Source: Haloplanus sp. CK5-1 (lineage in GTDB: Archaea > Halobacteriota > Halobacteria > Halobacteriales > Haloferacaceae). Taken from it: a DNA stretch of 64,000 nt. A model generated the notes under the pieces. The model was not told the DNA's origin and made no database searches. It saw only the letters and a list, made by a program, of their open reading frames with translations. Below are positions 8,417 to 11,692 of this stretch, in pieces. The position numbers and the translations under genes were made by a program. How positions within the stretch are numbered: position 1 is the stretch's first letter; the number at the start of each line of letters is the position of its first letter. The stretch spans positions 1,364,001 to 1,428,000 of the forward strand of contig NZ_CP147505.1 in assembly GCF_037201915.1 (NCBI RefSeq), in the 5' to 3' direction.

Positions 8417-9259
8417 ATGTCACACGAACTCGGCGAGAGCGACTGGGGCGACTGGCTCCCGGCGGCCGTCGCGGACGCCGACCCCGACACCGTCGCGCTC
8501 TGGTATCTGGGCTGTAACGGATTCGTCATCAAGGGGAGTGGCGGAACGACGCTGTTCGTCGATCCCTACTGCGGCACGGGCGATCCGCCACGGACGGTGC
8601 GGATGATCCCCGTCCCGTTCGATCCGAGCGACGTCGAGGACGCGGATGCGGTCCTCGCGACCCACGAACACTCGGATCACGTCCACGGGCCGACGCAGGC
8701 TCCCATCCTCGCCTCGACCGGCGCGGACTACTACGCCCCCGACGCCAGCATGGCGGTCGTCGAACGGGAGGCGTGGACCGACGAGTGGGGTGTCGTCGCC
8801 GACCAGTTCACGACCGTCGCCGAGGGCGACCGGTTCGAAGTGGGGGAGTTCACGGTCCACGTCGTCCCGGTGAACGACCCCGACGCGGACCATCCTGTCG
8901 GCTACGTGATCGACCACCCCGACGGCACCGTGTTCCACGGCGGCGACACCCGGCACGCCGACTCCTTCTCCGACCTCGCCGCCCGGTTCGACATCGACCT
9001 CGGCGTCTTGGCCTTCGGCTCCGCCGGCCGCATTCCCGACAAGGAGACGGGCGATCCGACCCGGACGCAGTGGTACGCCGACGAGAACGGCGTGATCCGC
9101 GCGGCCGAGGCGCTCGAACTCGACCGCTTGCTACCCAGCCACTGGGACGTGTGGAAGGGACTCACCGCCGACCCGACCGTCCTCCACCACCACGCCCGGA
9201 GCTTCGACGCCCCCGAGCGACTGGATATCGTCGAGATCGGCGACCGGGTCGACCTGTAA
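8417..9259 (+). CDS. MBL-fold metal-dependent hydrolase
   Basis: A 280-aa metallo-beta-lactamase-fold protein, likely binuclear zinc and cytoplasmic, of the UlaG-like/UPF0173 kind. Metal ligands are visible in LATHEHSDHVHG (about 80-91, HxHxDH), in FHGGDTRHAD near 173 and in the terminal histidine of LLPSHWDVWKG near 239. The start at 8417 gives MSHELGESDWGDWLP with little upstream coding character, although the open frame extends back through mvaD antisense. Substrate is unknown. It is divergent from mvaD with a 102-base gap, so the two could share a regulatory region. Confidence 0.8.
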   Translation: MSHELGESDWGDWLPAAVADADPDTVALWYLGCNGFVIKGSGGTTLFVDPYCGTGDPPRTVRMIPVPFDPSDVEDADAVLATHEHSDHVHGPTQAPILASTGADYYAPDASMAVVEREAWTDEWGVVADQFTTVAEGDRFEVGEFTVHVVPVNDPDADHPVGYVIDHPDGTVFHGGDTRHADSFSDLAARFDIDLGVLAFGSAGRIPDKETGDPTRTQWYADENGVIRAAEALELDRLLPSHWDVWKGLTADPTVLHHHARSFDAPERLDIVEIGDRVDL

Positions 9260-9310
9260 CCCTCCCGACCCGCCGGTTGTTTTATGCTACTACTGGGAAC
9301 AGTATGCGCC

Positions 9311-10747
9311 ATGGCCGACCCAGAGTCCGACCCCTCGGTGTCCGTCTCGACGGGGGAGGTGCGCGTGGGGAAGGCGTTCGAGGCCGACCGTTTCCCGGTT
9401 CCGGCTATCGCCTTCGAGATCGAATCGCTCGCCGAGGATCCCGTCCGGATCCGCCTCGTGGACCACATCCCGGAGTCGTTCCCGATGGAAGGCGTCGGTT
9501 TCCACCCCGACTACGACAGCGACAACTGGACCGCCTACCGCGACCACCGCGTCGCGTACGAGCGAACGCTCGACCCAGGAGAGTCCGTCCTCACGGTGTA
9601 CGGCATCCGCATCGACGACCCATCCGAGGCCGAGGCGTTCCTCGACGAGCCGACGATCGAACTCGTCGAGACCGACGCCGACCTCGACACCGGCGACGTG
9701 CTCGGTCGGGAGACGACACAAGTCGTCCGCGACGCCCTCTCCGGCGAGGGGGACGACGGACTGTCCGACTTCGACTCCGGATCGTTGCTCGGCGACCCCG
9801 GCGAGACGATCGACGACGCCGACGGTCGGGTGAACGGTGCGACCGAGGCCGACGACAGCCCGGAACCCCGCGACCCGATGGAGGGCGAGGACGCCGAGAC
9901 CGAAGACGAAGTGGAGTCGGAAGAGGAGGCACCGGGCGAGGAAGTGGAGTCGGAAGAGGAGGCACCGGACGAGGAAGTGGAGTCGGAAGAGGAGGCACCG
10001 GGCGAGGAAGTGGAGTCGGAAGAGGAGGCACCGGACGAGGAAGGGGAAGACGAAGCGCCAGCGTCGGTCCACGCCTCGGCCGCAGCCGGGGCGCTCGACC
10101 CCCGCGACCGCTCCGTTGGGGCCGACGGGTCGGTCGGTAGCGACGCCGCCGAGACCGACACCGAGAGCACGAGCGACGAGACGGTCGAATCGACGCCGTC
10201 CGCCACGACGACCGAGTCCGTCGCGGCCACGCTCGCCGCCGAGATACGTGCTGGACACGTCGACGACGACGACCTCGCGGTCCTCCGAGAGGCGATCGAC
10301 GACGCGTCGCCGACCAGCGTCGACGCCCGGATCGGCCGCCTCCAGTCGGAGGTCGAGGACCTGCTGGCTTACCGCGACGCCCTCGCCGGGTTCCTCGACG
10401 AGAACGGCACCGCCGAAGAAGCTCTCGACGAGGTGACCGCGGAACTGAGCGACCTCTCCGACCGTGTCGACGACCTCGCAGACTCGCTGTCGGCGGCCGA
10501 GGTCGACCGAGCCGACCTCGACGACGAGGTGGCCGCCCTCACCGACGACGTCGCGACCGTCTCCGATCGGATCGACGAGTTCGACGACGACCTCGGTGAT
10601 CTCGGCGAGACGGTCGATCGTCTCGACGACCGCGTCGACGCGCTCGAGGGGTTCGAGGACGACATCGAGACGCTCCGATCGGAGATCGACGACCTTCAGA
10701 CGTTCCGCGACCGCCTCGGCGACGCCTTCGGGACCGGTCAGGGGTGA
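9311..10747 (+). CDS. Acidic coiled-coil protein with 11-residue tandem repeats
   Basis: A 478-aa soluble, extremely acidic protein of unknown function. Residues 1-190 form a globular domain with beta-like segments (IRIRLVDHIPESF, ESVLTVYGIRID). Residues about 200-243 are four copies of an 11-residue unit VESEEEAPGEE/VESEEEAPDEE. Residues about 330-470 are a long Asp-rich coiled coil (ELSDLSDRVDDLADSLSAAE and similar). The ATG at 9311 gives MADPESDPSVS; an in-frame ATG at 9284 lies within the promoter-like TTTTATGC. The HisG-like gene starts 48 bases downstream on the same strand, so both may form an operon. A scaffold or filament-like role is only a guess. Confidence 0.7.
   Translation: MADPESDPSVSVSTGEVRVGKAFEADRFPVPAIAFEIESLAEDPVRIRLVDHIPESFPMEGVGFHPDYDSDNWTAYRDHRVAYERTLDPGESVLTVYGIRIDDPSEAEAFLDEPTIELVETDADLDTGDVLGRETTQVVRDALSGEGDDGLSDFDSGSLLGDPGETIDDADGRVNGATEADDSPEPRDPMEGEDAETEDEVESEEEAPGEEVESEEEAPDEEVESEEEAPGEEVESEEEAPDEEGEDEAPASVHASAAAGALDPRDRSVGADGSVGSDAAETDTESTSDETVESTPSATTTESVAATLAAEIRAGHVDDDDLAVLREAIDDASPTSVDARIGRLQSEVEDLLAYRDALAGFLDENGTAEEALDEVTAELSDLSDRVDDLADSLSAAEVDRADLDDEVAALTDDVATVSDRIDEFDDDLGDLGETVDRLDDRVDALEGFEDDIETLRSEIDDLQTFRDRLGDAFGTGQG
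9908..10039 (+). repeat. 33-bp tandem repeat, 4 copies
   Basis: Four contiguous 33-base units begin at 9908, 9941, 9974 and 10007. They are near-identical and alternate between GGC and GAC at the tenth codon, so the array is really two 66-base dimers. The unit length keeps the reading frame and encodes VESEEEAP(G/D)EE. Such an array is prone to copy-number change by slippage or recombination. Confidence 0.9.
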
Positions 10748-10795
10748 CGCCTCCGAAGCGCAATCGGTAAAGCCCGCCCTCCCGTCGATCCGACA

Positions 10796-11692
10796 ATGAC
10801 CGAGACGGTCCGTGTCGCCGTCCCTCGGAAGGGACGCCCGCTGGAGGCGGTTCTCGAACGCTTCGCCGCCGTCGCGGACGTCGACGACCTCGCGGACGAC
10901 ATCTCCTCGACGCTCCGGTACGAGAAGGCGATCACCAAAGGCGAAGCGAGCCCCGACGGCGACGTCTACGAGCGGCTCGCGGCGTACAGCGGCCTCTCGG
11001 ACCCGACCAATCCGGAGTACACCCTCCTGCGGGACGACCGCGAGGGCATGCCCCGGCGCATCGTCTTCGACAGCGTGACCGTCGTGGTAGACGGCGTCAC
11101 GATCGAACTCGTCGGTCGGGAGGAGCCGTTTCGTGCGCTGCGCACCCACGAGTTCGGCCTCGGGTTCGACAGCGCCGACCTGGTGTTGGAGGAGGTGGTC
11201 ACGCTGGGTGAGGAAGGCCTCGAATCGCTCGCCGACGTGAACGCCCGGATCGACCCCCGCGACACCGACGTCCGGATCGTGAGTGGCCTCGGGGACACGG
11301 TGTATCACACGCTCCTCGCGACGCCGGAGGTCGTGCCTCCGGGGACCGACCTCGACCGGGCGTTCGTCGCCGACTACGCCGGGCCACTCTGCATCTCGCC
11401 GCGGTACGAACGCCTCGTCGAGGCCGTCCTCGGCACGCGAGCGCTCGCCGACGTGACGTTCACCTACCCGGAACCGGGGATCGAGGAGGAGGCCGCGATC
11501 GCCGACGTCGGCCTCGGCGTCTACCTCACGATGACCGGATCGACCGCGCGCGAACACGGACTCGTCGTCGGCGAGAACCTCTTCCCGAGCGAGACGGTCC
11601 TGATGGAGAACGCCGCGGAGACGGAGTCGGCGGCGGAGCGACTCCGGGCCGAACTGGTGGGGGCGGACCTAGAGACGGCGATCCGTCCCTAG
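10796..11692 (+). CDS. HisG-like (ATP phosphoribosyltransferase-related) protein
   Basis: A 298-aa protein whose ends resemble HisG. The N-terminus VRVAVPRKGRPLEAVLERF parallels the RIAxPxKGRL start. A central FRALRTHEFGLGFDSADLVLEE matches the segment where HisG has its ligand-binding GITGxDLL. The C-terminal AAIADVGLGVYLTMTGSTAREHGL parallels the HisG AIxDxVxTGxTLxxNGL phosphate loop. It is longer at the N-terminal domain than short HisG and lacks the exact GITG and catalytic spacing, so I read it as a HisG-fold paralogue, not the histidine enzyme. No his genes are nearby. Its stop overlaps that of convergent TFB (CTAG). Confidence 0.65.
   Translation: MTETVRVAVPRKGRPLEAVLERFAAVADVDDLADDISSTLRYEKAITKGEASPDGDVYERLAAYSGLSDPTNPEYTLLRDDREGMPRRIVFDSVTVVVDGVTIELVGREEPFRALRTHEFGLGFDSADLVLEEVVTLGEEGLESLADVNARIDPRDTDVRIVSGLGDTVYHTLLATPEVVPPGTDLDRAFVADYAGPLCISPRYERLVEAVLGTRALADVTFTYPEPGIEEEAAIADVGLGVYLTMTGSTAREHGLVVGENLFPSETVLMENAAETESAAERLRAELVGADLETAIRP

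What the first reader, a model, noticed from the sequence alone, without database searches (positions are those of the whole stretch)
10796..11692. Long HisG-fold paralogue outside a histidine locus
Both ends and the centre match HisG landmarks (VAVPRKGRP, FGLGFDSADLVL, TMTGSTAREHGL), but the protein is not next to his genes and deviates in key loops. It may be a new phosphoribosyltransferase-fold enzyme or binding protein.
Basis: inference. Interest (0 to 1): 0.5.

Follow-up and report, generated by a model that had tools for sequence, protein, structure and literature searches.

The report
Haloarchaeal HisG-fold protein, unknown function
Most salt-loving archaea carry an unnamed protein with the fold of HisG, the first enzyme of histidine synthesis, which is a separate family of unknown job and mostly occurs in genomes that also have a normal HisG.

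Summary
ORF 10796-11692 (+, 298 aa) is real and under purifying selection. Its predicted structure matches HisG catalytic cores best: the first 35 PDB entries are all HisG, Z 15.6-12.8, then 10.3. By sequence it is sub-threshold HisG (Pfam 18.3 bits, cut-off 25.5). It is not a long-form HisG: the C-terminal regulatory domain is missing, and the length comes mainly from a helical insertion (about residues 30-86). The genome has a normal HisG elsewhere. The family is in 234 of 293 genomes of the order and was not confirmed outside it. It usually follows an MBL hydrolase and a coiled-coil gene, but these mostly persist in genomes without it. HisG's KGR arginine and phosphate loop are kept; HisG's invariant Asp is an invariant Tyr. 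Most likely it is an enzyme acting on PRPP or a similar phosphorylated ligand with an acceptor other than ATP; this is inferred. No curated family or paper was found for it. Side finding: some genomes without detectable HisG keep hisB and hisD.

The parts
10796..11692 (+). HisG-fold protein (298 aa), the subject of the finding
10814..10837 (+). codons of residues 7-14 (VAVPRKGR), equivalent to HisG first strand and PNKGR motif; K12 and R14 invariant in 117 of 117 sequences
10883..11053 (+). approximate insertion in domain I (residues 30-86; helices 30-47 and 57-64) relative to HisG
   Evidence: boundaries by inference
11528..11563 (+). codons of residues 245-256 (TMTGSTAREHGL), equivalent to HisG phosphate-binding loop; preceded by Tyr243 (codon 11522-11524) where HisG has an invariant Asp
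9284..10747 (+). usual upstream neighbour: acidic coiled-coil protein with an N-terminal beta-sandwich (487 aa); 48 bp between it and the HisG-like gene
8417..9259 (+). metallo-beta-lactamase-fold hydrolase of the UlaG-like group, further usual upstream neighbour (start codon inferred inside a longer ORF)

Best explanation
The gene encodes a haloarchaeal orthologous family that shares ancestry with the catalytic core of HisG (ATP phosphoribosyltransferase, type IV fold) but is not HisG. It is cytosolic by inference (no signal peptide seen by eye). The most likely mechanism is inferred: it binds PRPP or a similar phosphorylated sugar between the two domains, with the TGSTAR loop holding the phosphate and R14 (KGR) and other invariant arginines holding the diphosphate, and acts on an acceptor other than ATP, shaped by the domain I insertion and Tyr243. 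Shown: existence, conservation, predicted fold, sequence link at the C-terminal block (and at the N-terminal motif in a forced alignment), coexistence with HisG, presence in the order only as far as searched, absence in several lineages. Inferred: ligand, catalysis, acceptor.
For: Fold: first 35 PDB entries all HisG, 2vd3_A Z 15.6, rmsd 3.5 over 205 residues, next group (periplasmic-type binding folds) Z 10.3; all 50 Foldseek rows shown are HisG, best E 1.9e-09. Sequence: PF01634 is the commonest family among 32 members (28 of 32 at E <= 1), with P0001's match over the C-terminal phosphate-loop region; hhalign finds that block only (probability 16, E 0.0016), and the forced global alignment also pairs PRKGR with PNKGR. 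Residues: K12, R14, R79, R82, R88, R108, R113, R116, R203, R206, E231, G248 and T250 identical in 117 of 117, R252 in 115 of 117, as expected for an enzyme or a tight ligand site. In Psychrobacter HisG, R32 and R56 stabilise the pyrophosphate and E163 contacts the PRPP 3'-OH (PMC9734150, passages). The profile coordinates place R32 at the KGR arginine, hence R14, if author numbering is one less than the chain index. R56 to R87/R88, R73 to R108 and E163 to E230 are inferred. Distribution: 234 of 293 genomes of the order (one search gives 235; the weak G011 hit was not confirmed), HisG in 281 of 293.
Against: HisG's invariant Asp before the loop (D155 in L003) is Tyr243 in 117 of 117, so ribose or metal handling must differ or be lost. 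Sequence scores of P0001 are below both curated cut-offs. The family profile against PDB sequences gives no HisG. Foldseek TM-scores are modest (0.34-0.50 by query length in the 50 rows shown). The Haloferax gap review, of which I saw passages, shows no phosphoribosyltransferase gap that this would plainly fill (PMC8305020). The neighbours give no function. No ligand or activity data exist.
Confidence: 0.45

Rival explanations
1. A non-catalytic descendant of HisG that senses PRPP or a nucleotide, or regulates another enzyme (perhaps through the neighbouring coiled-coil protein).
For: Asp to Tyr change at a HisG-invariant site; usual position close behind a coiled-coil gene (83 of 98 loci with that gene within 300 bp upstream on the same strand).
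Against: The pattern of invariant charged residues across both domains looks catalytic (a judgement); a match to the coiled-coil gene's N-terminal domain persists in 46 of 58 genomes without the protein and is missing within 3 kb of it in 7 of 98 loci, so no strict partnership.
Confidence: 0.3
2. A second, diverged ATP phosphoribosyltransferase that can stand in for HisG in histidine synthesis.
For: Seven genomes have this protein, no detectable HisG, and keep HisD and HisB: G132, G183, G213, G251, G079, G160, G195; HisA confirmed in G132 and G195. All three sampled genomes of genus g8 are of this kind (G213 has the same coordinates as L126, Halolamina pelagica).
Against: G198 lacks both proteins and still has HisA, HisB and HisD. 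HisG loss is no commoner with it (6 of 225 good genomes) than without it (1 of 30). The copies seen from HisG-less lineages (L051, L126, L033) keep Tyr243 and show no shift towards HisG by eye. 227 of 234 genomes with it keep HisG too.
Confidence: 0.08
3. A cytosolic ligand-binding protein of the general type II periplasmic-binding fold that is not closely related to HisG.
Against: HisG entries stand clearly above them (35 entries, Z 12.8-15.6), and Pfam's only match of P0001 is HisG. No transporter gene among the eight neighbours scanned.
Confidence: 0.07

Closest known systems
HisG, ATP phosphoribosyltransferase (PF01634, TIGR00070; type IV PRTase)
   Same: Two-domain catalytic-core fold (predicted); PxKGR motif on the first strand; T-G-x-T loop; conserved arginines; similar order of elements in domain I apart from the insertion (element order by my reading).
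   Different: Scores below curated cut-offs; invariant Asp replaced by Tyr243; domain I insertion of about 57 residues; no C-terminal regulatory domain; coexists with true HisG in 227 of 234 genomes.
Type II periplasmic-binding-protein fold (e.g. ProX 1sw1, SsuA-like 3uif)
   Same: Same broad fold class, Z 9.6-9.8.
   Different: Lower Z than HisG; no export signal seen by eye; HisG-type motifs present.

Membership tests
HisG (ATP-PRT) | Sequence score above the curated family cut-off | tested here: not met
   P0001: PF01634 18.3 bits, cut-off 25.5; TIGR00070 15.5 bits, cut-off 75.75
HisG (ATP-PRT) | HisG catalytic-core fold | tested here: met
   predicted model; first 35 PDB entries all HisG, Z 12.8-15.6
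HisG (ATP-PRT) | KGR motif with the pyrophosphate-stabilising arginine | tested here: met
   K12, G13, R14 invariant; HisG PNKGR invariant; role from PMC9734150 passages, numbering through
HisG (ATP-PRT) | T-G-x-T phosphate loop | tested here: met
   T247 116/117 (one Ser), G248 and T250 117/117; loop role recalled
HisG (ATP-PRT) | Invariant Asp ahead of the loop (D155 of L003) | tested here: not met
   Tyr243 in 117 of 117; Asp invariant in 22 archaeal HisG
HisG (ATP-PRT) | Arginines equivalent to Psychrobacter HisG R56 and R73 | tested here: inconclusive
   R87/R88 and R108 sit on the matching strands by secondary-structure order only; the sequence alignments do not confirm it
HisG long form | C-terminal regulatory domain | tested here: not met
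   in nearly all HisG long-form rows the model aligns to HisG residues up to about 211-231 only (Medicago 271 by its own numbering; 1nh7 reaches 258) and then ends
HisG short form | HisZ partner | not tested
   no search made
HisG (ATP-PRT) | Makes PR-ATP from ATP and PRPP | not testable with these tools
   needs an assay
Periplasmic-binding protein | Closest structural relatives are solute-binding proteins | tested here: inconclusive
   they match, but below HisG

The most novel reading that the evidence does not exclude
A second kind of enzyme on the type IV phosphoribosyltransferase fold (as far as I recall known only from HisG) that uses PRPP with an acceptor other than ATP in a haloarchaea-specific pathway.
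Probability: 0.35. Interest if true: 0.6.

Novelty: new variant of a known kind. Interest (0 to 1): 0.42.

Why it matters
A review, of which I saw passages, counts ATP-PRT as its own class (type IV) of phosphoribosyltransferases (PMC3896937). A widespread haloarchaeal family with the same fold but a changed active site would be a second function for that fold and a candidate for an undescribed step of haloarchaeal metabolism. It could be deleted and assayed in Haloferax, whose species carry it. It also bears on a puzzle found on the way: genomes with hisB and hisD (and hisA where checked) but no detectable hisG.

Tried and rejected
Functional link to the MBL gene: rejected as obligate, since MBL is in 285 of 293 genomes and in 52 of the 58 that lack the HisG-like gene.

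Functional link to the coiled-coil gene by co-loss: an early count (no match in the fetched stretch around MBL in 11 of 12 loci) looked like co-loss, but matches lie elsewhere in the genome: 46 of 58 genomes without the HisG-like gene have one (E <= 1e-5, orthology of the weaker ones not checked). Of 13 such loci examined, five (L186-L190) keep MBL directly upstream of the coiled-coil gene and eight do not; in three of the five, all genus g54 (L186-L188), Dph2, MBL and the coiled-coil gene are in the usual order and only the HisG-like gene is gone.

Backup for HisG: see rivals. Loss with an anaerobic lifestyle: an idea from memory of genome sizes, not tested. Viruses: 15 pattern matches in viral contigs, none a relative. 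Plasmids: one record of 72,556, a 987 kb Natrinema thermotolerans plasmid, annotated hypothetical protein; a further stretch of that record told nothing. N-terminal domain of the coiled-coil protein: beta-sandwich model, no PDB match at E <= 0.001. Family profile against PDB sequences: only chance-level hits. Passages of two papers on haloarchaeal auxotrophs gave nothing on hisG loss (PMC4454726, PMC4300041). Ten paper searches listed no paper on this family; most subscription journals are not in that library.

Full report
WHAT IS THERE. The ORF at 10796-11692 (+) codes for 298 aa and starts MTETVRVAVPRKGRP, conserved in relatives. It is a real gene: dN/dS is 0.16, 0.18 and 0.21 against three orthologues, and 32 members align with a mean column identity of 67%. 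The window lies in a 3.24 Mb single-contig haloarchaeal genome; among the named relatives shown, the most similar proteins are in Haloplanus (89% and 83% identity).

FOLD AND SEQUENCE LINK. AlphaFold2 gave a confident model (pLDDT 85.7, pTM 0.79). All 50 Foldseek rows shown are HisG, with modest TM-scores (0.34-0.50 by query length). In the second look the first 35 entries are HisG (Z 15.6 to 12.8; 2vd3_A: rmsd 3.5 over 205 residues, 21% identity), followed by binding-protein folds at 10.3 and below. By sequence alone the link is weak: Pfam HisG 18.3 bits against a cut-off of 25.5, NCBIfam hisG 15.5 against 75.75, no PDB hit with the single sequence, no HisG hit with the profile. But PF01634 is the commonest match among members (28 of 32 at E <= 1), and profile comparison with 22 archaeal HisG pairs the TGSTAR block with TGTTLR (probability 16, E 0.0016 for this one comparison). 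A forced global alignment also pairs PRKGR with PNKGR. The middle is alignable only by the order of strands and helices, which is my inference.

ANATOMY. Compared with HisG there is an insertion between the first helix and the second strand of domain I (about residues 30-86, helices 30-47 and 57-64), smaller insertions near 135-158 and 176-190, and no C-terminal regulatory domain (boundaries inferred). So the length resembles long-form HisG by coincidence. In 117 distinct sequences K12, R14, R79, R82, R88, R108, R113, R116, H118, D167, H171, R203, R206, E231, Y243, G248 and T250 never vary. In Psychrobacter HisG, R32 and R56 stabilise the leaving pyrophosphate and E163 contacts the PRPP 3'-OH (PMC9734150, passages), and R73 contacts the ATP gamma-phosphate (PMC10795190, passages). 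Profile coordinates put R32 on the KGR arginine, which is R14 here, assuming author numbers are one below chain index. R56 to R87/R88, R73 to R108 and E163 to E230 (Glu in 110 of 117) rest on secondary-structure order or an ungapped extension from the loop. HisG's invariant Asp (D155 in L003) is Tyr243.

DISTRIBUTION. One search found matches in 235 of 293 genomes of the order. One (G011, E 0.0068) was not confirmed with the profile; in the same search the other 58 had nothing or chance-level hits (3 of 59 genomes with matches, E 0.019-0.59). So 234 of 293, and 225 of 255 genomes that are at least 90% complete and at most 5% contaminated. It is single-copy in most: of the 235 genomes with a match, 227 have one and eight have two at E <= 0.01 (G026, G029, G038, G043, G055, G150, G219, G229; second matches not examined; with the profile G043 and G055 show one). 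In 246 genomes of the phylum 40 matched; 38 are of this order, and the two outside it (E 9e-5 and 8e-4, 41-50 residues of a 292-residue frame) are probably ordinary HisG, which I did not check. A scan of one genome per species of bacteria and archaea with two peptide patterns gave 246 relatives; the best 80 are shown, 79 of them titled as haloarchaea and one only as uncultured archaeon A07HR67; the other 166 were not seen. Viral contigs: none. Absence is lineage-wise (all sampled genomes of g23, g44 and g54) and also sporadic inside genera g53, g71, g72 and g80, where sister species have it. That suggests several independent losses.

NEIGHBOURHOOD. In 98 distinct loci with 3 kb or more upstream, the coiled-coil gene lies on the same strand within 300 bp upstream in 83 and within 3 kb in 91. 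In 93 loci with 6.5 kb or more, the UlaG-like MBL hydrolase is upstream on the same strand within 6.5 kb in 84. A smaller set of 21 loci gave MBL in 20 and Dph2 nearby in 13. In the window the gaps between the three genes are 24 and 48 bp, so an operon is likely (inference). Yet the neighbours do not depend on it: MBL in 285 of 293 genomes, a coiled-coil match in 266 of 293, and among the 58 genomes without the HisG-like gene MBL in 52 and a coiled-coil match in 46. In L186-L188 only the HisG-like gene is missing from an otherwise kept order. Neighbourhood therefore gives no function.

RELATION TO HISTIDINE SYNTHESIS. This genome's HisG scores 177.7 bits. HisG is present in 281 of 293 genomes: in 227 of the 234 with the HisG-like gene, in 53 of the 58 without it, and in G011. 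Seven genomes have the HisG-like gene but no detectable HisG, and of the five with neither, G198 is the only one that is at least 90% complete. These eight (the seven and G198) all keep HisD and HisB, and a full-length archaeal HisG profile finds nothing better than E 0.12 in them (that one, in G160, is probably the HisG-like gene itself, by position). HisA was confirmed in the three checked, G132, G195 and G198. hisE, hisI, hisF and hisH were not searched. The G198 case and the similar rates of HisG loss (6 of 225 good genomes with, 1 of 30 without) speak against the HisG-like protein being the replacement, but do not exclude it. G079 and G160 are draft genomes in 120 and 210 contigs where HisG may simply be missing from the assembly, and masked stretches in other genomes cannot be excluded; the loci fetched from these genomes and checked held no N (13 loci).

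WHAT IT MOST LIKELY DOES. I favour an enzyme that uses PRPP or a related phosphorylated ligand with another acceptor, because the phosphate-holding parts of HisG are the best kept parts and charged residues are invariant throughout. The Asp to Tyr change and the lack of any biochemical data keep this at 0.45. A non-catalytic sensor is the main rival (0.3). A review of open annotation issues in Haloferax volcanii names histidinol-phosphatase as the only remaining gap in histidine synthesis and, in the passages I saw, no unassigned phosphoribosyltransferase step (PMC8305020; passages and outline). So if it is an enzyme, its pathway is not among the gaps seen there.

NOVELTY. No Pfam or NCBIfam model reaches its cut-off on it (PHROGs and PADLOC were not searched), the one annotated copy seen is called hypothetical protein, and ten paper searches listed nothing on it. 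I file it as a new variant of a known kind: a haloarchaeal branch of the HisG fold, outside HisG proper.

Noticed in passing
G132, G183, G213 (genus g8), G251, G195, G198; loci L197-L206: Near-complete haloarchaeal genomes without detectable HisG that keep HisB and HisD (and HisA in the three checked): either histidine synthesis starts in another way, HisG was missed, or the pathway is decaying.
   Followed up: partly
window 8417-9259: UlaG-like metallo-beta-lactamase-fold hydrolase, present in 285 of 293 haloarchaeal genomes, below every NCBIfam cut-off it was compared with.
   Followed up: partly
window 9284-10747: Acidic coiled-coil protein with repeated EEEAPGEEVES-like units and a confident N-terminal beta-sandwich that has no close PDB match; its homologue is annotated AAA family ATPase in CP031304, for which Pfam gave no support in the window copy.
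   Followed up: partly
G295, G304, G313, G322, G336, G342 (same phylum): Two full HisG genes per genome, the second scoring about 145-153 bits.
   Followed up: no
G000:C1:1016721-1017926: Second histidinol dehydrogenase gene in the window's genome, 478.6 bits besides 513.9.
   Followed up: no
window 9290-11557, minus strand: A 755-codon open frame runs antisense through the coiled-coil and HisG-like genes; probably an artefact of high GC content.
   Followed up: no
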